Part shown: piece by piece, positions 1 to 24,616 of the stretch
Layout: each line of letters starts with the position of its first letter
Numbering within the stretch: position 1 is the first letter of the stretch
Assembly (NCBI GenBank): GCA_001873285.1
Contig: MNYV01000020.1
Location: forward strand, 1 to 24,616
Reading direction: 5' to 3'
DNA: 24,616 nucleotides
DNA from: Nitrospirae bacterium CG2_30_53_67
Lineage (GTDB): Bacteria > CG2-30-53-67
Translations under genes and position numbers: made by a program
The notes under the pieces: generated by a model
Database searches by the model: none
What the model saw: the letters and a program-made list of their open reading frames with translations, nothing else
Told to the model about the DNA's origin: nothing

Positions 1-71
1 AAAAATGGGCGCTGTCCCTATTTATTCGTTATTTATTCGTCCAAAAATGGGCGCTGTCCCTATTTATTCGT
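1..71. repeat. Tandem pair of a 29-bp repeat
   Basis: An identical 29-bp unit occurs at 1-29 and 43-71, and its last 11 bases (TATTTATTCGT) are repeated once more at 30-40. The inner 16 bases, GGGCGCTGTCCCTATT, recur at 20603-20618 near the right-hand methyltransferase gene. The GGG-N6-CCC core is weakly palindromic. Similar dispersed palindromes in bacteria are often moved by REP-type transposases, but no transposase is visible here, so that link is inference. The window edge may cut a longer array. Confidence 0.8.
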
Positions 72-100
72 CCCGGGTAATATTGAACTCCCGGCAAGTG

Positions 101-160
101 GCCTAACGACAAGCATAAGCGGCGGCGCTTTTTGCCGTCCGCTTGATGCGCTTGTTATGT
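101..160 (-). other. attC: attC site of an integron cassette (attC1)
   Basis: This 60-bp imperfect palindrome, read on the minus strand, starts with ACATAAC (R'' box) and ends with GTTAGGC (R' box, a perfect GTTRRRY). The inner L boxes pair as AAGCGGACGGC against AAGCGGCGGC, leaving one extra A unpaired in the 5' arm. The well-known aadA attC shows the same extrahelical base pattern, and it sets the orientation as gene first, attC second. The site begins 75 bp after the stop of the minus-strand methyltransferase gene. The R'' box pairs at 6 of 7 positions with GTTATAT at 2118-2124, the expected left end of the same cassette. Confidence 0.85.
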
Positions 161-235
161 GTATTTTTTCTTTCATTTATAATCTTGCCCGTCTTTCTCA
201 ACTAAAACAAGGATGGCGGAAGCTGATTCTCTTCA

Positions 236-1159
236 TTATTCAACAACCGCCTTATATTCCGCTATTTGTTCAAATAGAGTAAGTTGTTCAATTCTTTCGG
301 TTTTATACTCGATTGGAATTGCTTTAAAATTCGTAATAAGGGCTTCAACCATAGGGTTGCGATTAGTTTCTTTTCCACCCACATGATAAAAATGTTCACG
401 AGTTAGTATGTCGTAAGAATTCCAGAGCGAATCTATATAGTCATTCTTTCTATAATCGTTATGATGCCATGTAGACAGAATGAATGACGAGTTAGCCTTT
501 TGCAGAGAACTGAAAAGCTCCTTTTCTTTTTCTTCTTCCCACCCATTGAAATAATCTGTATGTCTATCAATGTATGGTGGATCACAATAAATCATGTCAT
601 TTGAATTAGCCATTGCAATTGTCTTTTTAAAATCCTGGCATAAGAATTTAAAATCATTAAACTGAAGCAAATAGTAAACATATTCAATCTGATTCACTAT
701 TTTTGTGACATACGCTTGTGCGAAACGCTCTGGTTTACGGCAAAACGGAACATTAAACCCCCCTTTGCGATTAAATCTTATCATCCCGTTAAAACATGAC
801 CGATTAAGGAAAATAAAATCTAATGGATTATGTTCATTATTAAATCTATCTCGAATTTTGTAATAATGGTCTTCGCCCTTCTCCAATAGAATTGCTCCTT
901 CTCTTTGGAGGTATTCTTTTGCCTTTTCTGGTGTTATGTCCTTTTTTTGTATAGCAGTATAAAAATTGATTAAATGTGGATTGGAGTCAGCCATTATAGC
1001 TTTTTTCGGACATACATTAAATGCTACAACACCAGTGCCCATGAATGGCTCTATCCAAGTACCAGTAAAGGGTTCAGGAATAATACTGTTTATCCAAGGT
1101 ACTAATTTTGTTTTTATACCCTGTGATTTTATCGGAGGAACATATATTTTTTTGTTCAT
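236..1159 (-). CDS. ecoRVM-like: EcoRV-type adenine-N6 DNA methyltransferase
   Basis: This 307-aa alpha-class, Dam-family N6-adenine methyltransferase is expected to protect GATATC by methylating an adenine. I recognise close resemblance along the whole length to M.EcoRV, for example [14 protein letters not shown] near the N-terminus (motif X), [12 protein letters not shown] at 37-48 (AdoMet-binding motif I), [12 protein letters not shown] at 119-130, DPPY at 193-196 (catalytic motif IV) and the C-terminal [10 protein letters not shown] chose the ATG at 1159 because M.EcoRV begins with the same [14 protein letters not shown] and an AGGA ribosome site lies 8 nt upstream. A longer frame to 1195 would overlap the endonuclease gene. 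The gene begins 10 nt after the endonuclease stop, so the two are cotranscribed with the endonuclease first. attC1 follows it. Confidence 0.93.
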
Positions 1160-1169
1160 TAAGAGTCCT

Positions 1170-1997
1170 TCATTCCCCTGTACGTTTAGGGACAATTAGT
1201 TTTGTATCGCCTTTTTTATATTCAACAAACTCTTTTAGATTTGAAACTGTCACTGCTTCATTGTTTTCATTTGTCGTTTTTATTTTCTTATAGTTTATCC
1301 AATATTCATCAAACCATTTTTCTCCAAGTTTTGAGAACATACCACGACCATTTATAATATCCTCAATATGTGTAATGCTACCAATATTAGCTGTATTACC
1401 GCTCCCCCCCTTATCACTTGCAATTTTCCATTTCTCAACAACAAAAAAATTGAAATCTTTAACGACAGAAGATATTGATTTGAGTTTTGAAATATCATAA
1501 GATTTCGTTTCATCAATCGTAACACCGTCAGCCCTGCTATATATGATACCCAAACAGAAATGACCAGAATAGTCGCTATACGGAAACTGAATGTTCTTGG
1601 TGCTTTTACGATTTTGAAAATATTCGCCATGCGAACCCAGCGTAAATCCATTACACAAGTGGGATTTTGCAGGGTTCTTATATGTGGTTTTGAAATCAAC
1701 TGCAAATTTTATTTTTTCATTCGAGGTCTTTACAAATGAAATGTCTGGATAATAATTTTGATGTTCAGCTAATACAATTTTGTAACCATATTTAGACGCA
1801 AATTCCATAATTTTGGGAAAAAGGTGAATTTCAAGGATTTTAGACACAATTTTTGTGTCAGCAGAAATTGTATAGATGTTTTTAAATATGTCGATAAATC
1901 CCTTAACAGTCCATTGTCCATCTTTTGAACTTATGTGGGATTGAAATGTTTTTACAAATTCTTTTAATTGGTTTTCAAACATTTCTTTTTCACTCAT
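1170..1997 (-). CDS. ecoRVR-like: EcoRV-type type II restriction endonuclease
   Basis: This 275-aa PD-(D/E)XK endonuclease is predicted to cut GATATC. Resemblance to EcoRV (245 aa) is seen in the active-site block: QNYYPD (D85) followed 16 residues later by AVDFKTTY (D101, K103), matching EcoRV D74, D90 and K92. It is also seen in the glycine-rich stretch [12 protein letters not shown], which corresponds to GSGNTTNIGSI of EcoRV. An N-terminal extension and a longer C-terminus explain the extra 30 residues. The ATG at 1997 has AAGGA 8 nt upstream; the open frame to 2126 crosses the likely cassette boundary and has no ribosome site. Catalytic residues look intact, so the enzyme is probably active. 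It precedes the methyltransferase in the operon. Confidence 0.92.
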
Positions 1998-2066
1998 TTT
2001 TTTTCCTTTTTTTGCAAGCCCTGTGGACGGTGCGCATCCAAGACGGGCGAATTTTTTAATACACAT

Positions 2067-2085
2067 AACTATTGTATATATAGTT
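2067..2085 (-). promoter_or_regulatory. Candidate operator/promoter palindrome upstream of the EcoRV-type endonuclease
   Basis: AACTAT-N7-ATAGTT forms a 6+6 inverted repeat about 70 nt before the endonuclease ATG. On the minus strand it overlaps a TACAAT hexamer that could be a -10 box; no good -35 box is seen. R-M operons commonly use such palindromes as controller-protein or self-repression sites. No controller gene is visible in the cassette, so the role is inferred. Confidence 0.35.
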
Positions 2086-2117
2086 TCTTGATAAAACCTA
2101 TGGACTGCTCGAATGCT

Positions 2118-2234
2118 ATATAACACACCTTCGTACTCTTTCCCATAAGCTCATGTCTTTCAACGACTTGAATCCTTTCCTCCAAATTTGCGGGGTGATA
2201 TATGGTTTCTATATAACACCCCGCAGCTTCCGGG
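2118..2234 (-). other. attI: Candidate attI recombination site region
   Basis: This is the stretch between the intI stop and the cassette start. It has two identical 11-bp copies of CTATATAACAC (plus strand, 2116-2126 and 2209-2219), each containing the core GTTATAT on the minus strand. The inner copy (2118-2124) fits the cassette junction. Direct core repeats within attI are known from attI1. No R''-type box or attC hairpin lies between the two cores, so the 93-bp segment is not an obvious cassette. The call rests on position and core sequence; attI sites share too little sequence for direct recognition. Confidence 0.5.
2190..2224. repeat. Inverted repeat just downstream of intI
   Basis: GCGGGGTGATATAT pairs with ATATAACACCCCGC (13 of 14 positions) around a 7-nt loop, ending 10 nt after the intI stop. 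One arm contains the outer GTTATAT core. It could be a transcription terminator for intI, although there is only a weak T-run, or a structured part of the recombination site. Confidence 0.6.
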
Positions 2235-3212
2235 CTACAATGAGTCAGCCGGACTGCGGACTCCCTTGCCGCCCCGGTTTAGAACGTGGGTGTAGATCAT
2301 TGTTGTCTTCACGTCCTTATGACCCAGAAGTTCCTGTACGGTACGGATATCATAGCCATCGGACAGCAAATGCGTGGCAAACGAATGCCGGAATGTGTGG
2401 CAGCTCGCACGCCTGATGAGACCGGCCTCACGGACAGCCTCGGCCACCGCCTTCTGAACAAGGGACTCGTGGACGTGATGTCGTCCCTGCTGGCCGGTCC
2501 GGGGATTCAACCACCGCTTCTCCTGCGGGAATACCCACTGCCAGCGCCACTCTGCAGCGGCATTCGGATATTTCCGATCGAGGGCATAAGGCATTTGGAC
2601 GCGGCCCCACCCTTCAGAGAGGTCCTTTTCATGGATGGTCTTGTTTTTCTCCAGGCGATCCTGAAGGGGTTGTTTCGTTGATGCAGGGAGCATGGTAACC
2701 CTGTCTTTCGCGCCCTTTCCGTCACGAACTGTGATCTCGTTCCGGGCGAAATCGATATCCTGAACCCGCAGCCGCAGGCATTCCATGAGCCGCAGCCCCG
2801 CGCCGTACATCAACGAGGCCATGAGCCACTTGTCACCTGTCAGGTGGGTGAGGACGGCCTTCACTTCATCGCGTGTCATGACCACGGGTACACGGTGAGG
2901 CCGACGCGCCCGGATGACCGCTCCCAGATCGCCGACTTCTTTGTTCAGGACGTGCCGGTAAAGAAACAACAGGGCACTGAGTGCCTGATTCTGCGTGGAT
3001 GCGCTGACTTTTTCCTTGACGGCAAGATGGGTCAGGAAGGCGTTGATCTCGGGTTCGGCCATCTCGGATGGATGGCGTTTGTTGTGAAAGTAAATGAACC
3101 GCCTGACCCACAGGCAGTAGGTCTGTTCGGTCCGGCGGCTGTAATGGCGCGAACGCAGGGCCTCGCGCATCTGGTCGAGGAGCCTGGACTTTTGGGGTTG
3201 TGGAGGCCGCAT
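2235..3212 (-). CDS. intI: Integron integrase (IntI), tyrosine recombinase
   Basis: This 325-aa tyrosine recombinase inserts and excises gene cassettes by attI x attC recombination. The catalytic set is complete: R141 ([16 protein letters not shown]), a lysine in GKGAKDR, H272 and R275 ([13 protein letters not shown]), H298 (LLGH) and nucleophile Y307 ([11 protein letters not shown]). The insert found only in integron integrases, absent from XerC/D, is present at about 205-232 ([20 protein letters not shown]). This separates IntI from phage integrases. The start at 3212 ([14 protein letters not shown]) matches the family N-terminus; the open frame continues to 3368 but the added residues look unrelated. 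The ribosome site is weak. The gene reads toward the cassette, an inverted arrangement known from a minority of integrons. Confidence 0.95.
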
Positions 3213-3464
3213 GGTATCAACTTTAAAGGTTATGGGGCAAGAGCTCGGCAGGCAATTAAGTTTAGGCATGGTTTGCACCCTGGTTTTAATGATTTGGCAG
3301 TATATCTTCAGGGAATTACGCCTGTCAAGAATAATTATAACCGGAAAGGGGATGATAAAGAAGTACACTATGCATGGATAGACCGACCGTGAACTGGATT
3401 GAGAAGCATCGAACCAAGAGGCATTTGATTGACAATAGGTATAGTTTAGGTATAATTATTATAT
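3213..3464. other. Intergenic region between intI and brnT
   Basis: This 252-bp divergent region should hold the intI promoter. I see no clear LexA box, attI-like core repeat or attC hairpin on this 5' side of intI, which supports placing attI on the 3' side. The brnT promoter is at its right end. Confidence 0.5.
3429..3456 (+). promoter_or_regulatory. Sigma70-type promoter of brnTA
   Basis: Perfect consensus boxes, TTGACA (3429-3434) and TATAAT (3451-3456), are separated by 16 bp. The expected start of transcription, about 7 nt after the -10 box, falls at 3462-3465, at or next to the brnT ATG at 3465. BrnA normally represses such a promoter. Confidence 0.8.
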
Positions 3465-3734
3465 ATGGAGTTTGAATTCGACGCCAGGAAAGGCGAGGCC
3501 AACAAGATAAAACATGGGATTGACTTCTACGAAGCCCAGGTTCTGTGGGATGACCCGGATTTGATTGAGATCCCCGTAAGAACCAGTGATGAACCAAGAT
3601 TACTTGTAATCGGAAAGATTGGGGGGAAGCATTGGTCAGGGGTTATTACCTATCGGGGCAATAGGACAAGGATTATTTCGGTACGACGTTCGAGGAAAGA
3701 GGAGGTTGATATCTATGAAAGCAAAAGAGTTTGA
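3465..3734 (+). CDS. brnT: BrnT family toxin (DUF497)
   Basis: This 89-aa ribonuclease toxin of a type II toxin-antitoxin pair is expected to stop growth by cleaving RNA unless bound by BrnA. Family signatures are the N-terminal FEFDARKGEANKIKHGIDFYEA, the central VIGKIGGKHWSGVITYRGNRTRIISVRRSRKEE and the C-terminal E/Y-containing tail. Length is normal for the family. The ATG at 3465 lies almost directly at the predicted transcript start, leaving no room for a ribosome site. The gene overlaps brnA by 20 bp, the standard toxin-first order for BrnTA. It sits beside intI but is not flanked by attC sites, so it is probably not a cassette. Confidence 0.92.
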   Translation: MEFEFDARKGEANKIKHGIDFYEAQVLWDDPDLIEIPVRTSDEPRLLVIGKIGGKHWSGVITYRGNRTRIISVRRSRKEEVDIYESKRV

Positions 3735-3939
3735 TGAAAAATTTGATAAAGGCGAGGATATTTCGAAACATCTGGATGTGTCAAAGGCAAGAAGGCCTGA
3801 GCACGAGCAGAAACGGGTGAATGTTGATTTCCCTTTGTGGATGATCCAGTTGTTGGACAGAGAAGCAAAACGTTTGGGTGTGCCTCGGCAATCCATTATC
3901 AAGCTCTGGGTCGCAGAGCGTCTTGAAAAGGTGACTTGA
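3715..3939 (+). CDS. brnA: BrnA-like ribbon-helix-helix antitoxin
   Basis: This 74-aa antitoxin and DNA-binding autorepressor partners BrnT. The N-terminal part (MKAKEFDEKFDKGEDISKHLD) resembles the toxin-wrapping segment of BrnA-type antitoxins. The C-terminal part (KRVNVDFPLWMIQLLDREAKRLGVPRQSIIKLWVAERLEK) is a ribbon-helix-helix fold. I chose the ATG at 3715 inside the brnT end because it begins with the usual MKAKEFDEKFD; an upstream open frame to 3619 reads antisensible toxin codons in another frame. The ribosome site GAGGTTGATATC is modest and lies inside brnT, suggesting translational coupling. Confidence 0.88.
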   Translation: MKAKEFDEKFDKGEDISKHLDVSKARRPEHEQKRVNVDFPLWMIQLLDREAKRLGVPRQSIIKLWVAERLEKVT

Positions 3940-4141: not shown

Positions 4142-5437
4142 TCAGGGGGTGCGGGGACGCCCGAGGTATTCATTCATCCCTTTGATGGCGCAGAATTCCC
4201 CGCACATGGAGCAGACCTCCTGGTCTTGCGGAGGCGACGACTGCCGAAGGGACCGTGCCCACTCCGGGTCCAAAGAGAGCCGGATCTGTTCCTCCCAGTT
4301 GAGCGCCCGCCTGGCCTTGGCCATGCTCACGTCCCGGTCCATGGCGCCCGGGATCCCTTTGGCAATGTCCGCGGCATGGGCCGCGATTTTCGACGCGATG
4401 ACACCCTGTCTCACGTCCTCGACCGTCGGGAGCCTCAGGTGCTCGGACGGGGTCACATAGCAGAGGAAGTCTGCGCCTGCGGCTGCGGCCAATGCCCCTC
4501 CGATGGCCGAGGTGATGTGGTCATAGCCCGGCGCGATATCCGTGACCAGGGGCCCGAGCACGTAAAACGGCGCGCCGTGACACAGGGATTTCTGCATCTC
4601 CACGTTGGCCTTGATCTGATGGATGGGCACATGCCCCGGCCCTTCGATCATAACCTGGACTTCGGCCTCCCGGGCCCGGCGGGTCAGCTCGCCCAGGGTG
4701 ATCAGCTCCTGGATCTGAGCTCGGTCCGTGGCATCGGCCAGGCAGCCGGGCCGCATGCCGTCTCCGAGACTGAGACAGAGGTCATAGCGCCGGGCAAGAT
4801 CGAGCAGGCGGTCGAAGTCCTCGTACAGCGGGTTCTCCCTCTCATGATGAATCATCCACTCCACAAGAAAGGAACCCCCTCGGCTCACCACATTGAGAAG
4901 GCGGCCCTGATGCTTCAGGGCTTCCAGCGCGGAAAGGGTGACTCCGCAGTGGACGGTGACGAAGTCCACGCCTTCGGAGGCCTGCCGCTCGATCACGTTA
5001 AAGAGATCGTCGGCGTTCATCTGCACGATCCCCTTCTTCTGCTCCGCGGCCAGAAGGGCGGCTTCATAGATCGGTACGGTCCCGACCGGAACAGGAAACT
5101 CCGAAAGGATCCGGCCGCGGATGGCCGGAAGGTCGCCGCCTGTGCTCAGGTCCATGAGGGTGTCGGCCCCGGCCTCCACGGCCGTGCGCGCCTTTGCCAT
5201 CTCTTCGTCCGCCTGCGCGTGGTCTTTTGAAGTCCCGATGTTGGCGTTGATCTTGGTGCGAAGCCCTTGCCCGATCCCGATGGGCACGCCGTTCTTCCGT
5301 GCCCGGCTCTTCACGATCACGATCCTTCCGTCCGACACGGCTTGGGCGATCTGTTCGGAGGCGATCCCCTCGTTCTCGGCCACCTGGTTTACCTCAGGTG
5401 TGATCTCTCCCCTGCGTGAGGCGCTGATCTGGTTCAT
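4142..5437 (-). CDS. thiC: Phosphomethylpyrimidine synthase ThiC
   Basis: This 431-aa radical SAM enzyme rearranges aminoimidazole ribotide to hydroxymethylpyrimidine phosphate, the pyrimidine half of thiamine. It shows the family blocks [32 protein letters not shown] and [20 protein letters not shown]. The C-terminal cluster motif CSMCGEFC is CX2CX3C, in the pattern of short ThiC proteins from anaerobes. The length is that of the short form, lacking the N-terminal domain of the enterobacterial enzyme (about 630 aa). The ATG at 5437 has AAAGGA 6 nt upstream and lies 1 nt after the thiE stop; an in-frame ATG at 5452 has no ribosome site. It is the last gene of the riboswitch-controlled operon. 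Confidence 0.97.
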
Positions 5438-9343: not shown

Positions 9344-9390
9344 TGATTTGGAAGGATAGGCATCCCCGGCCGGTGCAAACCATCATCCAA

Positions 9391-9480
9391 ACCGCTTCCC
9401 TACGCTGGCATTACCCAGATCAGGTTCAAGGGGTTGCCCGTGTTTTACAGGCTCTCAGTTGTTACAACTCCCCCAGGGTT
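9391..9480 (-). ncRNA. TPP riboswitch (thi box)
   Basis: On the minus strand the conserved elements appear in order: CTGGGGGAGTT, then CTGAGAG, then ACCCCTTGAACCTGATCTGG followed by GTAATGCCAGCGTAGGGAA. These are the pyrimidine- and pyrophosphate-sensing parts of the TPP aptamer. It lies 125-215 nt upstream of thiF and should turn off the whole thiFHSGEC operon when thiamine diphosphate is plentiful. A plausible promoter ends just before it. Confidence 0.97.
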
Positions 9481-9493
9481 TACTGGAGATTAG

Positions 9494-9522: not shown

Positions 9523-9808
9523 ACGCTTTTCTCTCGGCGGGTTTGTAAAAGCTGTCGAGGGTCTTCAAAAGGCCTTTTTTCTGCAGGATGTTATGGCATC
9601 CGTCTCCCCATGGGACAAGAAGGCGGCATCCGCCCGGATTTGCAATTGACTCTACAGGCGATATATGTTTAAAATGGTTGATGATCAAGGAGTTATCCAT
9701 CTGATTTTGATCCATCTATCTCTATCTTGGACCCAGTCTGAATACATCCAGGGCGGTTTCCCTGAAAGGTGAGGGGTGAAAAGTGTTTAAAAAGACCGGG
9801 CATTGATC
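9523..9808. other. Divergent intergenic region between thi promoter and DUF512 gene
   Basis: About 285 bp with no convincing gene. A 72-codon minus-strand frame (9497-9715) has no family resemblance that I recognise and its stop lies inside the thi promoter. No RNA gene or clear terminator is seen. Confidence 0.5.
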
Positions 9809-11131
9809 ATGAACAGCATCAAGAGAACAGACGGACTCAAGATCATGCGTGTCCACCCCGGGTCCAAGGCCGAGAGGTCCGGAATCAGGGAGGGAGATTT
9901 CCTGCTAAGGATCAACGGCCGTCTCATAGAAGATCCGATTGATTACCGTTTTTTTGAAAGCGAGGAAGATGTCGTTATTGAGATCGAACGCGAGACGGCC
10001 CATCACCGCATGGCATTAACCAAGGAAATGGATGAAGACCTCGGGCTTGAACTTAAAGAGCCGCGTTACAGGACATGCCGGAACCACTGCATGTTTTGCT
10101 TTGTCCGTCAGATGCCCAAGGGTCTGCGGAGATCCCTGTATGTGAAGGACGATGATTACCGGCTCTCCTTCATGCATGGGAACTATATCACACTGACCAA
10201 CCTGACCCAGTCGGATTTTGAACGGATTTTTCAGCAGCGTCTCTCCCCGCTCTATGTTTCAGTTCATGCCACAGAGGATGCGGTCAGGCGAAGGATACTG
10301 GGGAATCCGGAGGCCCCTTCTATTCTCCCGGCCATGAAGCGCCTCATATCCGGCGGGATCCGTCTGCATACGCAGATCGTCTTGTGCCCCGGCGTTAATG
10401 ACGGGGCGGTGCTGGATCACACGGCGGGCGAACTGATGGATCTCTGGCCGGGCGTTTCCTCCGCGGCCGTGGTCCCGGTGGGGTTGACACGGCACCGAGA
10501 GAATTTGGAGCCCCTTCAGGGGATAGATCCGCATTATGCCGGGTGGGTCCTGAATCAAGTCGAGGCCTTCCAGAAGATATGTATCCGGCGGTTTTCAGAG
10601 CCGTGGATCTTTGCCTCCGATGAATTTTACCTGACCGCCGGCCGCTCTTTTCCTCCCGTGAAGCGCTATGGGGAACTCCCCCAGGTCGAAAACGGCGTCG
10701 GCATGACGCCGTTGTTTGTTCAACAGGTGGAAAAGGCGCTGAATCGTCTTCCCAAAGATCAGGCCGGGAGAAGGTATGTCATCGGGACAGGGGTATCGGC
10801 CTATCCCGTCCTTCACAGGCTGATTCAGCGGATTATGGATCAGACCGGATGCAGAGTGGACCTGGTCCGGATCAGGAACCGGTTCTTCGGGGATTCGGTC
10901 ACGGTTTCCGGCCTTCTCACCGGAAGTGACCTGATGGATGCCTTCTTGAAGCATACCCATACCGGCGGCCCCATCATCCTCCCGAACAGTATGCTCAGGC
11001 TTAAGAAGAGGACCTTTTTGGACGGGATGAACATACGCGATGTGGAAAAACAGATAGGCTGGCGGCTCCGGTTTGTGGAAAGCAGCGCGGAGGGGTTTTT
11101 GAGCCCTTTTTTAAAAGTTAGAATTCCTTAA
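9809..11131 (+). CDS. DUF512 family protein: PDZ domain plus radical SAM
   Basis: A 440-aa protein of unknown exact function. Residues about 8-50 form a PDZ-like domain (VHPGSKAERSGIREGDFLLRINGR). Residues about 85-270 form a radical SAM barrel with cluster cysteines CRNHCMFCFV (CX3CX2C, about 90-97) and FMHGNYITLTNLTQSD. The C-terminal DUF512 part holds WIFASDEFYLTAGR, NGVGM, IGTGVSAYP and the late NSMLRLKKRTFLDGM. I chose the ATG at 9809; a TTG two codons earlier is also in frame. The ribosome site is poor. It is divergent from the thi operon and upstream of pilB with a 156-bp gap. Family members are common in anaerobes but no reaction is established to my knowledge. Confidence 0.88.
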   Translation: MNSIKRTDGLKIMRVHPGSKAERSGIREGDFLLRINGRLIEDPIDYRFFESEEDVVIEIERETAHHRMALTKEMDEDLGLELKEPRYRTCRNHCMFCFVRQMPKGLRRSLYVKDDDYRLSFMHGNYITLTNLTQSDFERIFQQRLSPLYVSVHATEDAVRRRILGNPEAPSILPAMKRLISGGIRLHTQIVLCPGVNDGAVLDHTAGELMDLWPGVSSAAVVPVGLTRHRENLEPLQGIDPHYAGWVLNQVEAFQKICIRRFSEPWIFASDEFYLTAGRSFPPVKRYGELPQVENGVGMTPLFVQQVEKALNRLPKDQAGRRYVIGTGVSAYPVLHRLIQRIMDQTGCRVDLVRIRNRFFGDSVTVSGLLTGSDLMDAFLKHTHTGGPIILPNSMLRLKKRTFLDGMNIRDVEKQIGWRLRFVESSAEGFLSPFLKVRIP

Positions 11132-11173
11132 TTTCATTAGAGAAAAATACTTTCCCCTGGATCAGAATAGACC

Positions 11174-11203
11174 TTGACAATTTTGGTCACCATCAACTAA
11201 AAT
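11174..11203 (+). promoter_or_regulatory. Putative sigma70 promoter of the pil cluster
   Basis: TTGACA (11174-11179) and TAAAAT (11198-11203) are separated by 18 bp, about 85 bp upstream of pilB. This is the only good promoter-like match in the 156-bp gap after the DUF512 gene. Confidence 0.5.
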
Positions 11204-11287
11204 TTTAATATAGGCAATGTGACTGTTCCTTCATGGATCCAGGATGCCGTACGCGTCCGGGATGCGGTCGGCTGAGGAGGTTGTTTC

Positions 11288-12985
11288 ATGGCAGGGAGAT
11301 TAGGCGCCCTCTTGATTAACGCGAATCTGATCAGTGAAGAGCAACTGCAGAAAGCCCTTGCCAAGCAAAAAAAAGAAGGCGGAAGACTCGGAAGCAGCCT
11401 GGTTCACATGGGATATATCAAGGAAGACAGCCTGATCGCCTTTTTAAGCCATCAGTACGGCATCCCGTCCGTTGATGTTTCAAAGTTTGAAATCGACCGT
11501 GAAGTGATCAAACTGATTCCCTCCGAAGTCGCCCAGAAATACATGATTATCCCGCTCAACCGGACCGGTTCGACCCTGACCATCGCCATGGTCGATCCCT
11601 CCAATGTCTTTGCCATCGACGATGTCAAATTCATGACCGGGTACAATGTGGAACCGGTGGTTTCTTCGGAGGCCGCGATTAAAGAAGCCATCAACAAGTA
11701 TTATGACTCATCCGACATGCTTCAGACCGTGATGCAGGATATCCAGGAAGATATCAATATTGATATCATCGAAGATACGATAGAGGATGTCGACATCGGG
11801 GAGATCAAGCAGGCGGTCGAGGAAGCCCCGGTCGTCAAACTGGTCAACCTGATCCTCGCTGAGGCCATCAAGAAGGGGGCGAGCGATATTCATATTGAAC
11901 CTTATGAAAAGGATTTCAGGGTTCGTTACCGGATAGACGGCGTGCTCTACGAGGTGATGGCGCCCCCGAAACGGCTCAAGGATGCCCTGACCTCCCGCCT
12001 GAAGATCATGGCTGAGCTGGATATCGCCGAAAGGAGGCTCCCACAGGACGGCCGCATCAAGTTGAAGATGAAAGGCAAGGAAGTGGACCTCCGTGTTTCC
12101 ACCCTGCCGACCCTTTTTGGGGAAAAAGTGGTGATGCGTATCCTGGACAAGAGCAACCTCATGCTCGACATGACCAAGCTGGGGTTTGAGGCCGAAGAGC
12201 TGAAGAAACTGACGAAAGCCATCTTCGCCCCCTACGGCATGGTCCTGGTCACGGGGCCGACCGGGAGCGGTAAATCCACAACCCTTTATTCCGCCCTCGG
12301 ACAGATCAACAAGCCGGAGATCAACATCATGACGGCAGAGGACCCGGTGGAATACAACCTTTTTGGAATCAATCAGGTCCAGATGAAGGAAGAAATCGGG
12401 TTGAACTTCGCGGCCTCTCTCCGATCCTTCCTGCGTCAGGACCCGGATGTGATCATGGTGGGTGAGATCCGGGATTACGAAACCGCCGAGATCGGGGTCA
12501 AGGCGGCCCTGACCGGTCACCTGGTGCTGAGCACCCTCCATACCAATGATGCGCCGAGCACCATCAACCGACTGCTGAACATGGGGATCGAGCCATTTCT
12601 GGTCGCCTCTTCGGTGATCCTGATCATGGCCCAGCGTCTTGCCCGGAAGGTCTGTTCGGAGTGCAAACAGCAGGTGGAGATTCCGGAAAAGACCCTGATT
12701 GATATCGGACTTACGCCCAAGCAGGTCTCAGAGGTCACCATCTACCAAGGCGCCGGATGCGCGGCGTGCAACAATACCGGATACAAAGGCCGGTTGGGCC
12801 TCTATGAAGTCATGCCTGTGGATGAGCACATTCGTGAACTCATCCTTGAAGGGGCCTCTGCGGCGGAGATCAAGCAGGCCGCCATTGAAAACGGGATGAT
12901 GTCCCTGCGCATGGCCGCATTGAATAAGTTGATGAGCGGTGTCACCACGGTTGACGAAGTCCTCCGGGTCACCTTCGGAGACTGA
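11288..12985 (+). CDS. pilB: Type IV pilus extension ATPase PilB
   Basis: This 565-aa cytoplasmic hexameric ATPase powers pilin polymerisation. The N-terminal GspE_N domain (about 1-150; GALLINANLISEEQLQKAL) is followed by the secretion ATPase core. Motifs are Walker A GPTGSGKST (about 324-332), an Asp box (MTAEDPVEYN), Walker B (RSFLRQDPDVIMVGEIRD), the His box (TGHLVLSTLHTND) and a tetracysteine zinc motif (CSEC... CAAC) near the C-terminus, which together mark PilB rather than PilT. A strong GAGGAGGT ribosome site precedes the ATG. It opens the pilBTCSR cluster. Confidence 0.97.
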   Translation: MAGRLGALLINANLISEEQLQKALAKQKKEGGRLGSSLVHMGYIKEDSLIAFLSHQYGIPSVDVSKFEIDREVIKLIPSEVAQKYMIIPLNRTGSTLTIAMVDPSNVFAIDDVKFMTGYNVEPVVSSEAAIKEAINKYYDSSDMLQTVMQDIQEDINIDIIEDTIEDVDIGEIKQAVEEAPVVKLVNLILAEAIKKGASDIHIEPYEKDFRVRYRIDGVLYEVMAPPKRLKDALTSRLKIMAELDIAERRLPQDGRIKLKMKGKEVDLRVSTLPTLFGEKVVMRILDKSNLMLDMTKLGFEAEELKKLTKAIFAPYGMVLVTGPTGSGKSTTLYSALGQINKPEINIMTAEDPVEYNLFGINQVQMKEEIGLNFAASLRSFLRQDPDVIMVGEIRDYETAEIGVKAALTGHLVLSTLHTNDAPSTINRLLNMGIEPFLVASSVILIMAQRLARKVCSECKQQVEIPEKTLIDIGLTPKQVSEVTIYQGAGCAACNNTGYKGRLGLYEVMPVDEHIRELILEGASAAEIKQAAIENGMMSLRMAALNKLMSGVTTVDEVLRVTFGD

Positions 12986-19143: not shown

Positions 19144-20297
19144 TCCATCCTCAGATCGAGACGATCCTTCTGATCGGGATAGGATTCCTTGCAGGGGCCG
19201 CCCTCGTCCGGATCCTTCCCAGGAAAGACCACGTCTCCAAGAATCAGCAAGAGGGCCGTACCGGCTTTTACAAAAGTCTGAACTATATCCTCTCCAATGA
19301 GCATGATAAAGCCATCGAGGAATTCACCCATATGGTGGAGCTGGATTCCGAAACCGTGGAGGTCTATCTTGCCCTGGGAAGTCTGTTCCGCTCCAAGGGC
19401 GAGGTCGGCCGGGCCATTCGGATTCACCAGAGCATCATCGTCCGCCCTTCACTGGACAAGAGGATCAAGGTCCAGGCATACTTTGATCTGGCCCTGGACT
19501 ACCAGAAGGCCGGTCTTTTCGACAACGCAATCGAAACATTCAGGGCCGTTATTCAGTTGGACCCCCATCATTTCCAGGCGCACCAGCGCCTGGAAAAGAT
19601 CTACGAAGAGGAGAAGAGCTGGGACAAGGCCTTCGAGATCCAGAAGAAGATCCAGAAACTGACCAACACCAAGGACACCATGGTGCTGGCGCATCTGGAA
19701 ACCGAAAAGGCCAAGCGCCTTCAGGAGCAAGGCCCGATAGACGATGCAATCCAGGGCTACAGGAGGGCGATACAGATCGACCGCAGATGTGTGGATGCCT
19801 ATCTGCATCTCGGCGACCTGTTCCATGATCAGGGAAAGTACCAGAAGGCGATCGGCATCTGGGAAGAGGTTTCAGAGCTCATCCCGGAATATGCCTTTCT
19901 GACCTACAAGAGGCTGGAGAATGCCTATTACGAACTCGGCCGGTACGAGGAGATGGGGGAGATCTATAAGAGAAATGTTACCAGGAATTCCAAGGATGTC
20001 CAGAGCCGGTTGGTCCTGGGAGACCACTACATCAGAAAAGGGGAGCTAAACGACGCCGCCCAGGAATACCAGGATGTCATCAGGATCAGTCCGAATTGCA
20101 TTGAGGCCCACCGGAGGATGGCGGAGATCCTGGTATCCCAGGGAAAGATGGATGAACTCAAACGTGAACTGGAGATGGTGATGACGATCTTTTCCACCAA
20201 ATACCTTTTTTACCATTGCAGCGGGTGCGGTTTTGAATCCAAGAATATCCTCTGGCACTGCCCCCAGTGCAAGAGCTGGGATACTTTTGTCCATTAA
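19140..20297 (+). CDS. lapB: LapB-type TPR protein with C-terminal rubredoxin-like zinc site
   Basis: This 385-aa protein has an N-terminal membrane anchor (about 7-25; ETILLIGIGFLAGAALVRIL), then a row of TPR units (for example NEHDKAIEEFTHMVELDSETVEVYLALG and DNAIETFRAVIQLDPHHFQAHQRL). It ends in a metal-binding knuckle with CSGCGFESKNILWHCPQC. This layout and length match LapB (YciM), which adjusts LPS synthesis through LpxC turnover by FtsH. The specific partner in this organism is inference. It is translationally coupled to lapA. Confidence 0.93.
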   Translation: MIHPQIETILLIGIGFLAGAALVRILPRKDHVSKNQQEGRTGFYKSLNYILSNEHDKAIEEFTHMVELDSETVEVYLALGSLFRSKGEVGRAIRIHQSIIVRPSLDKRIKVQAYFDLALDYQKAGLFDNAIETFRAVIQLDPHHFQAHQRLEKIYEEEKSWDKAFEIQKKIQKLTNTKDTMVLAHLETEKAKRLQEQGPIDDAIQGYRRAIQIDRRCVDAYLHLGDLFHDQGKYQKAIGIWEEVSELIPEYAFLTYKRLENAYYELGRYEEMGEIYKRNVTRNSKDVQSRLVLGDHYIRKGELNDAAQEYQDVIRISPNCIEAHRRMAEILVSQGKMDELKRELEMVMTIFSTKYLFYHCSGCGFESKNILWHCPQCKSWDTFVH

Positions 20298-20598
20298 AAC
20301 CGGAATTCGTTATTCGCCCGTGGCCGCCTTGTGGAGTTTGATCTCCACCATATCAAAGCTCCCTTTTCAATGATCCCTTTCTATCAGAATTAATGCTGAG
20401 GACCACGGGCATAAGTCGGCTTGGCCTGATCCTCCTCCTTTACGAGTCATCAACCGCCGGTATGGGAACCATGCATTAGAATGATCTTGACATGAATATC
20501 TATTGGGTGATAAATAACCCTTAACGGTAAAAATAGAAAAAGTGGAAGGCTTGTTTTCTGAAACTTACTTGCATCAGCAGAGGGAAGATTAAACATTA

Positions 20599-20618
20599 AA
20601 TAGGGCGCTGTCCCTATT
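20599..20618. repeat. Third copy of the GGGCGCTGTCCCTATT repeat
   Basis: AATAGGG-N6-CCCTATT is a perfect 7+7 inverted repeat. Positions 20603-20618 are identical to the core of the tandem repeat at 1-71, more than 20 kb away. Confidence 0.8.
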
Positions 20619-20654
20619 ATTTTACTAACACGTAATATCATGACAATAATTGCC

Positions 20655-20684
20655 TTTACTACCTCCCGTTCTTTTTGGTATGAT
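20655..20684 (+). promoter_or_regulatory. Possible promoter of the C5 methyltransferase operon
   Basis: TTTACT (20655-20660) and TATGAT (20679-20684) are 18 bp apart, 25 bp before the methyltransferase ATG. The -35 box is weak. Confidence 0.35.
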
Positions 20685-20709
20685 GATTGACAAATGATAC
20701 GGACATCCC

Positions 20710-22005
20710 ATGACGAAAAATAGAAAATACGATAAAACCAAAAAGGACATCCCTCTCGTTGCGGAAGAAGAAGCCGTTTATCTGGCACGAGTAGACGGAA
20801 CATTACAGGATGTAAAATTAAAACCCAAGCTGATTGATCTATTCGCCGGTGCCGGCGGTATGACGCTCGGATTCACGAAGTTGACCGGTCATGGTTTTGA
20901 GCCGGTTTGGGCGAACGATTTTAACGATCATGCAGCAAGGACGTACAATGCCAATTTCGGCAACCATTGTATCGTCGGCGACATTGTAAGCATTCTCGAA
21001 AACCCACGTACTAAAATTCCGAAAGCCGACGTAGTCATCGGCGGCCCACCCTGTCAAGGTTTCAGCCTTCTCAATAAGAACCGAGACGACGACCCGCGCA
21101 AGCAACTATGGCGACCGTACATGGATATTGTAGAACGCTCCGGCGCCTCCATTTTCGTCATGGAAAATGTCCCCCAAATGCTTGATTCTTTCGAGCATGG
21201 TGAAATCATCGGAGTTGCCGAATCGCTGGGTTTCAAACTTCGCTGGGCTAAGTTATGTGCAGCGGATTACGGCGTATCGCAAACAAGATGGCGTGCTTTC
21301 ATAATAGGCTGTAAATTCGCAGACCCTGAAGGTGTTTTCCCTCCGAAAAAAACAAACTACAATATCAACAACGGTTATCGCAAAGCGTTTTCTGAAGAGT
21401 TCGACTCATATATTGTGAATCCTTCGCCGTGGAGAAACGTTCGCGATGCCATCGCCGATCTGCCGCCGCCGGTCGGAACGGAAATTCGGGACATCCCGCC
21501 CCCGCTTGACCTTCACTTCGGACGTACGCCTACGCCGATGAGTATGAAACGTTATCGCGCTATACCGAAAGAGGGGATGAATCGATTCGACCTTCAAAAG
21601 AAAGCGCCGGATATTACTCCTGCATGTTGGATTCGCAAAACATCCGGCGGTACTGATCTATTCGGAAGGCTCTGGTGGGATAGGCCGTCTTTTACTATAA
21701 GAACGGAGTTTTTCAAACCGGAGAAAGGGCGCTATCTTCATCCCGTGCAGCATCGGCCTATAACCCACCGAGAGGCTGCGAGACTGCAATCATTCCCCGA
21801 TGATTTCAGATTCGTCGGGACAAAGATAGAAGTAGCGAAACAAATAGGCAACGCAGTCCCGCCATTGTTGGCCGCGCGCATCGCCGATTGTGTATACACG
21901 TTGCTTCTGTCCAAGGAAATAAATCGATGTCGGACGTCTTCAGCAGGAAAAAAAGAAGCTGGATTATGGCGCGAGTTTCAGGTAGCAACACAAAGCCTGA
22001 AATAA
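20710..22005 (+). CDS. dcm-like: C5-cytosine DNA methyltransferase
   Basis: This 431-aa enzyme methylates cytosine at carbon 5. All main motifs are present in order: I (LIDLFAGAGGMTLGF, 41-55), IV with nucleophile C115 (GGPPCQGFS), VI (MENVPQ, ENV 152-154), VIII (QTRWRAF, 191-197), a variable target-recognition region (about 200-330), IX (ITHREAARLQSFPDDF) and X (QIGNAVPP). The recognition sequence cannot be read from the protein. The start lacks a clear ribosome site. Its last 79 bp overlap the vsr gene in another frame. With the Vsr and HNH genes it forms a type II restriction-modification operon. Confidence 0.95.
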   Translation: MTKNRKYDKTKKDIPLVAEEEAVYLARVDGTLQDVKLKPKLIDLFAGAGGMTLGFTKLTGHGFEPVWANDFNDHAARTYNANFGNHCIVGDIVSILENPRTKIPKADVVIGGPPCQGFSLLNKNRDDDPRKQLWRPYMDIVERSGASIFVMENVPQMLDSFEHGEIIGVAESLGFKLRWAKLCAADYGVSQTRWRAFIIGCKFADPEGVFPPKKTNYNINNGYRKAFSEEFDSYIVNPSPWRNVRDAIADLPPPVGTEIRDIPPPLDLHFGRTPTPMSMKRYRAIPKEGMNRFDLQKKAPDITPACWIRKTSGGTDLFGRLWWDRPSFTIRTEFFKPEKGRYLHPVQHRPITHREAARLQSFPDDFRFVGTKIEVAKQIGNAVPPLLAARIADCVYTLLLSKEINRCRTSSAGKKEAGLWREFQVATQSLK

Positions 22006-22334
22006 TCGTCCGAAGAATACTTTACGGCTTGGGTTTTCGTTATCGTATAAATGTCCGAAAGTTGCCAGGCACTCCCGATATTGTATTATCGAAGCATAAT
22101 AAAGTGGTCTTCGTTCATGGCTGTTTCTGGCATGGCCATAAAGGCTGTAAACGTTCCAAGAGGCCAACTACGAATGTCGCTTTTTGGAACAGGAAAATAG
22201 ACAAGAACATCGAGAGAGACAAAAACGGTTTAAAAGAACTTCGGCGGCTCGGTTGGAAGCCGCTGGTGATTTGGGAATGCCAGACAAAGAAACTCGAATC
22301 ACTGGAAAAAAGGCTCGTTCGCTTTTTCAAATAG
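21927..22334 (+). CDS. vsr: Very short patch repair endonuclease Vsr
   Basis: This 135-aa mismatch endonuclease nicks at T:G mismatches created when 5-methylcytosine deaminates, protecting the sites of the partner methyltransferase from mutation. Signatures are the N-terminal VFSRKKRSWIMARVSGSNTKPE, LPGTPDIVL (D51), VVFVHGCFWHGHKGC (H64, H69 and the C66/H71/C74 zinc-binding region), NRKIDKNIERDK and LGWKPLVIWEC. The ATG at 21927 follows AAGGAAAT at good spacing and yields the canonical Vsr N-terminus. It overlaps the methyltransferase gene by 79 bp, suggesting coupled translation. Confidence 0.96.
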   Translation: MSDVFSRKKRSWIMARVSGSNTKPEIIVRRILYGLGFRYRINVRKLPGTPDIVLSKHNKVVFVHGCFWHGHKGCKRSKRPTTNVAFWNRKIDKNIERDKNGLKELRRLGWKPLVIWECQTKKLESLEKRLVRFFK

Positions 22335-22344
22335 GGGGTGCTTA

Positions 22345-22893
22345 ATGGGATCGAAAGACAAACTGCGGGCATATCTTGAAGCGAACGTAGGCAAAGTTCT
22401 TAAGACGGCTACACTTCGCAAGGTCGCAGGCGTAAGCGAGTACGCACGAAGACTTCGAGAATTACGCGATCAAGAAGGCATGCAGATTCGCTCCCATATC
22501 GACAGGCACGACCTCAAACCCGGCGAATACGTGCTTGAAAGTCTAAAGAGAATTCCGATGCTGGGACGCGGCATATCACCCCAGCTACGTAATGAAATTC
22601 TTGAGCGCAACGGTTTCACCTGCCGACTATGCGGTGCCGGATCTACCGACCCCGATCCATTCAATCCTTCTCGAAAAATCCGGCTTCATATCGACCATAT
22701 CATTCCACTGAGCCAAGACGGCACAAACGATAAGAACAATCTGCGAGTGCTCTGTTCCGCGTGCAATCAAGGCCGATCAAATATTCAGCCGCTTACCGAA
22801 TCTGCTCGAAATGTTTTGGCCCGTATCCGTCGCCTTCCTCGTGCATCTCAAAAAGAAGTTTATGAAGCGTTGAAGAAGGCATTTGCAGAATAA
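22345..22893 (+). CDS. HNH endonuclease, probable restriction enzyme of the C5 methyltransferase system
   Basis: This 182-aa protein has an N-terminal helical, winged-helix-like part (about 1-65; LRAYLEANVGKVLKTATLRKVAGVSEYARRLRELR) and a C-terminal HNH nuclease. Zinc pairs are C93/C96 (FTCRLCGAG) and C137/C140 (VLCSACNQGRSN), and the catalytic block is LHIDHIIPLSQDGTNDKNNLRVL (H115, D117, H118, N131/N132). The order methyltransferase, Vsr, HNH points to the restriction partner, though specificity is unknown. GGGGGTG is the ribosome site, 10 bp after vsr. attC2 begins 44 bp after the stop. Confidence 0.9.
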   Translation: MGSKDKLRAYLEANVGKVLKTATLRKVAGVSEYARRLRELRDQEGMQIRSHIDRHDLKPGEYVLESLKRIPMLGRGISPQLRNEILERNGFTCRLCGAGSTDPDPFNPSRKIRLHIDHIIPLSQDGTNDKNNLRVLCSACNQGRSNIQPLTESARNVLARIRRLPRASQKEVYEALKKAFAE

Positions 22894-22936
22894 AGTTCGG
22901 CCTGATATATCCTTGTCTTTACAATACGCGATGAAC

Positions 22937-22996
22937 GTCCAACAAGCGGCTCGACACCGTCCGGGCTTCGCCCGGCGGGTCAGCCGCGCGTTATAT
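22937..22996 (+). other. attC: attC-like site (attC2) behind the C5 methyltransferase-Vsr-HNH operon
   Basis: This 60-bp imperfect palindrome starts with GTCCAAC (a perfect RYYYAAC R'' box) and ends with GTTATAT (R' box). The arms pair through GCGGCT-C-GAC against GCGGCTGAC, leaving one extra base in the 5' arm as in known attC sites, and then through CCGGGC around a TTC loop. The extra base sets the orientation as plus, so the genes to the left lie in cassette order before it. The R' core GTTATAT equals the core at the attI/cassette junction at 2118-2124. A plain terminator hairpin is an alternative, but the box pattern and lack of a T-run favour attC. Confidence 0.7.
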
Positions 22997-23054
22997 TTTC
23001 CATCACGCCCCTCGGTCTGACACCAGGTAGAACACCGAGAAGAAGAGGATTTTC

Positions 23055-24616
23055 ATGCCACGACTGACCGAACAAGAACAACAAGAGATCATCCGTTTTC
23101 TGGAGGCGGGCAAACCGCTGCCGGACAAATTTCGTTTCCTGCTCTTTGAGGACAAGCGCGAGGTCGAATTGGTCTGGAACGGCAAGACCAGCGAGGTCTC
23201 CAATATCGTGCTGCCCTTTCAGGTGATCGAGCAGGTGGACGAGCCGCGCGCCGAAAGGCCAGAGGACACGTCACCACAAGGATTGCTTTTTGACGAGCGC
23301 GGCCGCCAACTCAAGGGCTGGACAAACAAGCTCATCTGGGGTGACAACAAGTTGATCCTCTCATCGCTGAAGAACGGCCCCCTGCGCGAGGAGATTGAAA
23401 AGCAGGGCGGCCTTAAGCTGATCTACATCGACCCGCCCTTCGACGTCGGCGCGGATTTCAGCATGGACATCGAGATCGGCGGCGACACCTTCACGAAAAA
23501 CCCCAACATCCTGGAAGAGATTGCTTACCGCGACACCTGGGGCAAAGGCACGGATTCCTTTATCGCCATGATCTACGAGCGGCTGGTGGTGATGCACGAT
23601 TTGTTGGCCGAAGACGGCAGTATTTATGTCCATTGTGATGTGAGAGTTGGAAGTTTTCTAAAACTCGTGCTAGATGAAATTTTTGGTGAAATTGGTTTCA
23701 ATAGCATGGTCATCTGGAAGAGAAGATCAGGCATAGTACAAAAGACAAATCAGTTTGGAATTACGACTGATTTTTTATTCTATTACAACAAAACTGATGA
23801 GTTCACGTTTTCCCCCCAGTTTACAACAGAAGACACAGAGGACTATATCAAGGAAAGATATACTTATAAGGAACCAGGTGGAAGAGTTTACAAGCTTGGT
23901 GATTTAAGCAATCCCGCGAACAGACCTACCCTGAAATATGAATATAAAGGATATGCTCCTCCAGAAAAAGGATGGGCTGTTTCCCGAGAACGAATGGAGC
24001 AAATGGATAAGGAGGGAAGATTATATTTTCCGAAAGACAAAGCTAAAAGATTAATGCGAAAACAATTCCTGGATGAATGGAAAGGTAAACCTGTTCAAAA
24101 CCTATGGGATGATGTTTTTCCTGTTAACTCGCAGGCAAAAGAAAAAGTTGACTACCCCACGCAAAAACCCGAAGCCCTTCTTGAACGCATCATCAAAGCC
24201 TCTTCCAACGAAGGCGACCTGGTTGCCGACTTCTTCTGCGGCTCCGGTACCACCGCCGCCGTGGCGGAAAAGCTGGGGCGCAAGTGGATCGTCAGCGATC
24301 TGGGCAAGTTCGCCATTCACACTACCCGTAAGCGTCTGATCGGCGTGCAGCGGGAACTCAAAGCCGAGGGCAAGGACTACCGCGCCTTTGAAATCCTCAA
24401 CCTGGGCAAGTACGAACGCCAGCACTACATCGGAATAGAACCGCTAATAGACGCGAATGCACGCGAATCAAAAGAAGATATTGGCGTTCATTCGCGTTCA
24501 TTGGCGGTTGAAGATGTTTCCCGCCGGGAAATGCAGCGCCGGATCATCGAACAAAAAGAAAAGGAATTTGTGGAACTGATCCTTCGCGCCTACCGCGCCG
24601 AGAAGACCGACGGCTT
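23055..24616 (+). CDS. mod: Adenine-specific DNA methyltransferase, type III Mod-like (5' part, runs off window)
   Basis: At least 520 residues are open to the window end with no stop. It is a beta-class N6-adenine methyltransferase: the catalytic DPPF (126-129; KLIYIDPPFDVGADF) comes before the AdoMet-binding motif (D392 onward; DFFCGSGTTAAVAEKLGRKW), with the target-recognition region between. EDGSIYVHCD and DYPTQKPEALLERII are further family blocks. The AGAGGA site 6 nt before ATG 23055 supports the start. About 23634-24150, the target-recognition part, is much more AT-rich than either flank. A palindromic repeat is inserted in frame at 24442-24506. A res helicase-nuclease gene would be expected beyond the window; that is inference. 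Confidence 0.93.
   Translation, partial: MPRLTEQEQQEIIRFLEAGKPLPDKFRFLLFEDKREVELVWNGKTSEVSNIVLPFQVIEQVDEPRAERPEDTSPQGLLFDERGRQLKGWTNKLIWGDNKLILSSLKNGPLREEIEKQGGLKLIYIDPPFDVGADFSMDIEIGGDTFTKNPNILEEIAYRDTWGKGTDSFIAMIYERLVVMHDLLAEDGSIYVHCDVRVGSFLKLVLDEIFGEIGFNSMVIWKRRSGIVQKTNQFGITTDFLFYYNKTDEFTFSPQFTTEDTEDYIKERYTYKEPGGRVYKLGDLSNPANRPTLKYEYKGYAPPEKGWAVSRERMEQMDKEGRLYFPKDKAKRLMRKQFLDEWKGKPVQNLWDDVFPVNSQAKEKVDYPTQKPEALLERIIKASSNEGDLVADFFCGSGTTAAVAEKLGRKWIVSDLGKFAIHTTRKRLIGVQRELKAEGKDYRAFEILNLGKYERQHYIGIEPLIDANARESKEDIGVHSRSLAVEDVSRREMQRRIIEQKEKEFVELILRAYRAEKTDG
24442..24506. repeat. Palindromic repeat inserted in frame in the mod gene
   Basis: Two arms of 27 bp (24442-24468 and 24480-24506), made of CGCGAAT/ATTCGCG-type units, pair at most positions around an 11-bp centre. 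The segment keeps the reading frame and adds about 22 residues (LIDANARESKEDIGVHSRSLAV) between conserved parts. Repeats of this CGCGAAT type occur between genes in other bacteria, to my memory; copy number here cannot be judged from one window. Confidence 0.75.

What the first reader, a model, noticed from the sequence alone, without database searches (positions are those of the whole stretch)
107..2123. A complete EcoRV-type restriction-modification operon packaged as an integron cassette
The endonuclease and methyltransferase genes lie between a GTTATAT core and a canonical 60-bp attC whose extrahelical base sets the same orientation as the genes. R'' (ACATAAC) pairs with the GTTATAT at the other end, as required if both ends came from one circular cassette. 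Most cassettes are about 0.5-1 kb with one gene; a two-gene, 2-kb R-M cassette that can move as a unit and be hard to lose is notable.
Basis: partly seen in the sequence, partly recalled or inferred. Interest (0 to 1): 0.8.

Follow-up and report, generated by a model that had tools for sequence, protein, structure and literature searches.

The report
EcoRV-type restriction system as integron cassette
A bacterial DNA-cutting defence system and its protective partner gene sit together inside a mobile integron cassette; such cassettes are a known kind, but this one belongs to a gene family that turns out to have been packaged and carried this way repeatedly across bacterial phyla.

Summary
Confirmed, with one correction. 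The window holds a chromosomal integron: IntI at 2238-3182 (TIGR02249, 485 bits), an attI, and a first cassette carrying an EcoRV-family endonuclease and a Dam-type methyltransferase, closed by a canonical attC at 101-160 (54 bits, E 3e-12 with a model built without it). The cassette is 107-2068, not 107-2123. The true 5' core is GTTATGT (2069-2063), pairing 7/7 (12/12 extended) with R''. Integron-borne R-M systems are already known, so this is a new member of a known kind.

What goes further: EcoRV-type R-M pairs directly precede an intact attC in at least seven other genomes of several phyla. One such cassette is 85-89% identical between Nitrospira and two Methylococcaceae from its core site to its attC region, with unrelated flanks, which shows transfer as a unit. 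Further loci carry decayed attCs at the methyltransferase stop codon. A second attC (22937-22996) follows a DCM/Vsr/HNH system in the same window. Activity of the enzymes and of IntI is untested.

The parts
107..2068 (-). the integron cassette as integrated (1962 bp), from TTATGT... to ...G of the attC
   Evidence: attC model hit plus 7/7 core match extended to 12 nt
101..160 (-). attC site: R'' ACATAAC (160-154), L'' with two extrahelical bases, loop, L', R' GTTAGGC (107-101)
   Evidence: covariance model 54.1 bits E 3e-12; single bulged hairpin with bulges on the L'' side
2063..2069 (-). GTTATGT core: recombination point (G|TTATGT) at the 5' end of the cassette
   Evidence: complementary to R'' over 7/7, 12/12 extended
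1170..1997 (-). EcoRV-family type II restriction endonuclease, 275 aa, ATG at 1997
   Evidence: PF09233 E 8.8e-118; PDB EcoRV E 6e-40 with active-site residues aligned
236..1159 (-). D12/Dam-type N6-adenine DNA methyltransferase, ATG at 1159
   Evidence: TIGR00571 E 4.7e-64, PF02086 E 1.9e-50
2118..2129 (-).
   Evidence: same element, same spacing in G001 in front of another cassette; imperfect second copy at 2209-2222
2238..3182 (-). integron integrase IntI (ORF 2235-3368), transcribed towards attI and the cassette
   Evidence: TIGR02249 485 bits, cut-off 265, full length

Best explanation
A chromosomal integron with its integrase pointing towards attI (as in Treponema) has taken up, at attI, a two-gene cassette encoding an EcoRV-type R-M system. 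Shown by sequence: integrase gene, attI element shared with a same-genus genome, crossover point, both genes, canonical attC in the right orientation, matching core sites. Inferred: IntI recombines the folded bottom strand of the cassette's attC with attI, so the R-M pair enters and leaves as a circle; the endonuclease cuts unmodified incoming DNA (probably GATATC, since the EcoRV recognition loop is kept) and the methyltransferase protects the host; loss of the cassette could be costly because the remaining endonuclease would cut newly unmethylated DNA.
For: gene identities and active site; attC model hit, model built without the window site; matching cassette ends, near zero in the swapped-flank control; attC of the circle folds at -23.3 kcal/mol on the bottom strand, z -6.3; shared attI element and spacing; same chromosomal place in G001: thi genes, BrnTA, intI, attI, array, YhcH, with different cassettes; same kind of cassette elsewhere, once with homology ending at the cassette edges.
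Against: No excised circle or strain with an empty attI was seen. The contig starts at position 1, 100 bp beyond the attC, so the rest of the array is unknown. No promoter-like site was found in the cassette orientation in 1900-2400. GATATC is not depleted in 91 kb of this genome (43 found, 41 expected), so a long-standing EcoRV-like activity is not visible in composition.
Confidence: 0.94

Rival explanations
1. A chromosomal or island-borne R-M operon that lies beside an integron by chance, with an attC-like hairpin downstream.
For: R-M genes gather in islands; this genome carries another R-M island 18 kb away.
Against: Canonical attC with E 2.9e-10 genome-wide, 7/7 (12/12) end match, crossover at the conserved distance from the attI element, and the same arrangement in seven or more other genomes.
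Confidence: 0.03
2. A former cassette, now fixed: the structure is real but IntI or the sites are inactive, so the R-M pair no longer moves.
For: Decayed attCs next to EcoRV-type genes are common elsewhere. A 27-residue intI remnant and scattered attCs exist in this genome.
Against: The window's intI is open and full length, its attC scores like class 1 integron sites, and the same-genus integron holds different cassettes at the same attI.
Confidence: 0.2
3. The cassette starts at GTTATAT (2124).
For: 6 of 7 bases pair with R''.
Against: GTTATGT at 2069 pairs 7/7 and 12/12; GTTATAT with the same 55-nt spacing precedes an unrelated cassette in G001 and recurs at 2217 in the window.
Confidence: 0.02

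Closest known systems
R-M and other anti-phage cassettes of chromosomal and mobile integrons (Xanthomonas: PMC12444791; Vibrio and mobile integrons as reviewed in PMC12409362)
   Same: Defence genes including restriction-modification carried as attC cassettes
   Different: This is an EcoRV-family R plus M pair of ordinary size (about 2 kb); PMC12409362 reports that restriction systems in integrons tend to be reduced in size. The literature searches found no EcoRV-family cassette.
Chromosomal integrons of Treponema with intI transcribed towards attI (PMC3607928)
   Same: intI and cassettes point the same way, attI at the 3' end of intI
   Different: Another lineage, conserved between two species of the window's genus at one locus beside thiC
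EcoRV R-M system of Escherichia coli plasmids
   Same: Endonuclease family, catalytic residues and GSGNT loop; 38% identical over 77% of the protein
   Different: Here R and M are in tandem, inside an integron cassette

Membership tests
integron gene cassette | attC site: R''/R' and L''/L' boxes, bulged hairpin with extrahelical bases on one strand | tested here: met
   54.1 bits E 3e-12, minus strand only; two bulges on the L'' side
integron gene cassette | 5' core GTT... complementary to the cassette's own R'' | tested here: met
   GTTATGT at 2069, 7/7, extended 12/12
integron gene cassette | genes oriented towards the attC | tested here: met
   R and M on minus strand, attC oriented minus
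integron gene cassette | mobilised by IntI as a circle | not testable with these tools
   Needs reads or an assay; indirect support from a relative cassette shared between phyla with sharp edges
integron | integron integrase of the IntI subfamily | tested here: met
   TIGR02249 485 bits, cut-off 265
integron | attI next to intI | tested here: met
   Element GGTGTGTTATAT with 55-nt spacing to the crossover shared with G001
reverse-orientation integron (Treponema type) | intI transcribed towards attI, same direction as cassettes | tested here: met
   intI and cassette both on minus strand, attI at the 3' end of intI; description from PMC3607928
EcoRV-family type II R-M system | EcoRV-family endonuclease with catalytic E/D/DxK | tested here: met
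   PF09233 E 8.8e-118; alignment to EcoRV
EcoRV-family type II R-M system | cognate adenine methyltransferase next to it | tested here: met
   TIGR00571, PF02086; paired in nearly all relatives
EcoRV-family type II R-M system | cleavage and methylation of GATATC | not testable with these tools
   Recognition loop kept; no GATATC depletion in 91 kb

The most novel reading that the evidence does not exclude
EcoRV-type R-M pairs are a recurrent integron cargo: captured or kept as cassettes in several separate lineages, carried whole between phyla, and then fixed in chromosomes where the attC decays around the methyltransferase stop codon, so that ordinary-looking R-M operons are fossil cassettes.
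Probability: 0.75. Interest if true: 0.58.

Novelty: new member of a known kind. Interest (0 to 1): 0.46.

Why it matters
It gives a clean, bounded case of a full-size R-M system travelling as one integron cassette, and shows that a well-known restriction enzyme family has used this route repeatedly. The decayed attCs offer a way to trace how mobile defence genes become fixed chromosomal ones, and the R-before-M order makes safe entry of such a cassette into a naive cell a testable question.

Tried and rejected
Strict R-box patterns (RYYYAAC...GTTRRRY) missed the window's attC because its R'' is ACATAAC; relaxed rules plus a covariance model were used instead. Rfam gathering-score search shows only a TPP riboswitch in the window, no attC family. 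A single origin of the attC-bearing EcoRV loci (six taken as one clade) is rejected (p 3e-47, quick tree), but parsimony cannot tell repeated gain from repeated loss. No 5' core was found for the second cassette-like unit (the few GTTGGAC matches in the window are as many as chance).

Full report
Observation. The window is a whole contig (G000:C20, 24616 bp) of a 2.36-Mb, 183-contig genome. On its minus strand lie an integron integrase (TIGR02249, 485 bits against a cut-off of 265), then an EcoRV-family endonuclease (PF09233 E 8.8e-118) and a D12/Dam methyltransferase (TIGR00571 E 4.7e-64). The endonuclease aligns with solved EcoRV (E 6e-40), keeping the catalytic E, D and DxK positions and the GSGNT loop.

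attC. A covariance model was built from 13 attC sites of class 1 integron plasmids and other genomes, the window excluded. It finds exactly two sites in the window: 101-160 minus (54.1 bits, E 3e-12) and 22937-22996 plus (32.3 bits, E 1.7e-6). In the whole genome the first is the best of nine hits (E 2.9e-10). Its score is in the range of class 1 sites. The bottom strand folds as one hairpin with two single bulges on the L'' side, the asymmetry that sets orientation.

Boundaries. The repeat finder shows a perfect 12-nt inverted pair 154-165 / 2058-2069, which puts the core at GTTATGT (2069-2063). It pairs 7/7 with R'' and 12/12 extended, against 6/7 for GTTATAT. The same-genus genome G001 has the same locus (thi genes, BrnTA, intI, attI), with a different first cassette (an HNH nuclease) whose core GTTAGTT (L034 9036) pairs 7/7, 13/13 extended, with its own attC. 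There GGTGTGTTATAT lies 55 nt before the crossover, exactly as in the window. So GTTATAT belongs to attI, and the cassette is 107-2068, 1962 bp. The attC of the circle, made by joining the two cassette ends, folds at -23.3 kcal/mol on the bottom strand (z -6.3).

Far end of the array. The YhcH-type gene (name from its sequence, not tested) that bounds the array in G001 lies at the end of contig C178 in this genome, so the array probably runs from C20 towards C178, with an unknown number of cassettes in the gap.

Same cassette elsewhere. Among 386 genomes searched as relatives (most only of the same domain), 14 hold an EcoRV-family gene; G001 does not. Reading those loci and 80 more from a species-wide genome collection, intact attCs follow the R-M pair in L080/L154 (one locus, Gemmatimonadetes), L088 (with a second cassette behind it), L111 (Nitrospira, three attCs), L114, L116, L140 and L170 (Desulfobacteraceae, attCs on both sides). 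All 18 model hits in the set are on the gene strand. Requiring a folded attC and a 7/7 core match upstream gives 6 of 95 loci; flanks swapped between loci give 0-1. intI above cut-off is present in 8 of 15 host genomes tested.

Transfer as a unit. L111 (Nitrospira), L116 (Methylococcaceae) and L128 (Methylomonas koyamae) are 85-89% identical in DNA from the GTTATGC core (3916) to the attC (L111/L116 to 5807; L128 to 5752), while flanks are unrelated. L164 and L170 share DNA starting close to the G|TTAGG core. This shows cassette-edge transfer for relatives; for the window cassette it is inferred.

Decayed attCs. In many EcoRV-type loci the methyltransferase stop codon lies in GCATAAC, an R''-like box. 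Scoring the next 18 bases in that fixed register against 25,737 other TAA sites gives p<0.01 in 11 of 95 loci and p<0.001 in 8; five of the 11 have intact attCs, the others (L110, L112, L113, L119, L125, L131) have remnants. Methylobacter loci share their flanks with each other, consistent with a fixed, inherited former cassette. In a tree of 80 R+M pairs the eight intact-attC loci need eight changes of state, and holding six of them as one clade is rejected. The distance from methyltransferase stop to attC also differs (-29 to +76 nt), which favours separate captures, but the tree cannot distinguish gain from loss.

How it most likely works. Shown: anatomy, orientation, sites, family membership. 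Inferred from integron and EcoRV biology: IntI recombines the single-stranded attC hairpin with attI, the cassette enters as a circle, and R and M provide restriction and self-protection. Toxin-antitoxin cassettes are reported to stabilise integron arrays (literature cited in PMC11023631); an R-M cassette could act likewise, but this is untested.

Known or new. R-M systems in integron cassettes are reported in Xanthomonas (PMC12444791), in a review (PMC12409362), and noted in PMC9892861; an intI pointing towards attI is known from Treponema (PMC3607928). No paper found here links EcoRV-type systems to integrons, but most subscription papers are not held. Hence: new member of a known kind, with a family-level pattern of greater interest.

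Limits. The attC model is small and its E-values rough; the tree is a quick one; the 80 loci are the best matches to this family, not a random sample; host genomes are mostly metagenome bins.

Noticed in passing
window 20710-22996 (+): A second attC (22937-22996, R'' GTCCAAC, R' GTTATAT, 32.3 bits) directly follows a DCM methyltransferase, Vsr and HNH endonuclease in gene orientation; no matching 5' core was found, so it may be a damaged R-M cassette.
   Followed up: partly
window 20285-24616 and G000:C120:1-633: A defence island (DCM/Vsr/HNH with attC, then a DNA methylase that looks like a type III Mod; C120 starts with what reads as a type III Res C-terminus) sits between a TPR gene and sat, which are neighbours in the same-genus genome; about 70 bp of the sat 3' end is duplicated at 87% identity.
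   Followed up: partly
L108, L110, L112, L113, L119, L125, L127, L128, L131, L150: Decayed attC-like sequence at the methyltransferase stop codon of EcoRV-type R-M loci: L110, L112, L113, L119, L125, L131 by score, the others by eye only.
   Followed up: yes
window 154-165 / 2058-2069; L034 9036-9048 / 9725-9737: Complementarity between cassette ends runs 12-13 nt, well past the 7-nt R boxes, in both integrons of this genus; whether IntI needs it is unknown.
   Followed up: no
window 1-73; G000 contigs C120, C146, C44, C40, C28, C60 and others: A short repeat (AAAAATGGGCGCTGTCCCTATTTATT) is scattered over the genome, sometimes near contig ends and attC sites.
   Followed up: no
L103 (G000:C40) 10158-12070; L033 (G000:C146) 4752-4838; L104, L105, L106: Further attCs elsewhere in this genome; on C40 they flank a two-ORF cassette, on C146 one lies near a 27-residue intI remnant.
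   Followed up: partly
window 3465-3939: A BrnT/BrnA toxin-antitoxin pair lies next to intI in both species of the genus.
   Followed up: no
window 9380-9484 (-): TPP riboswitch near the thiamine biosynthesis genes.
   Followed up: no
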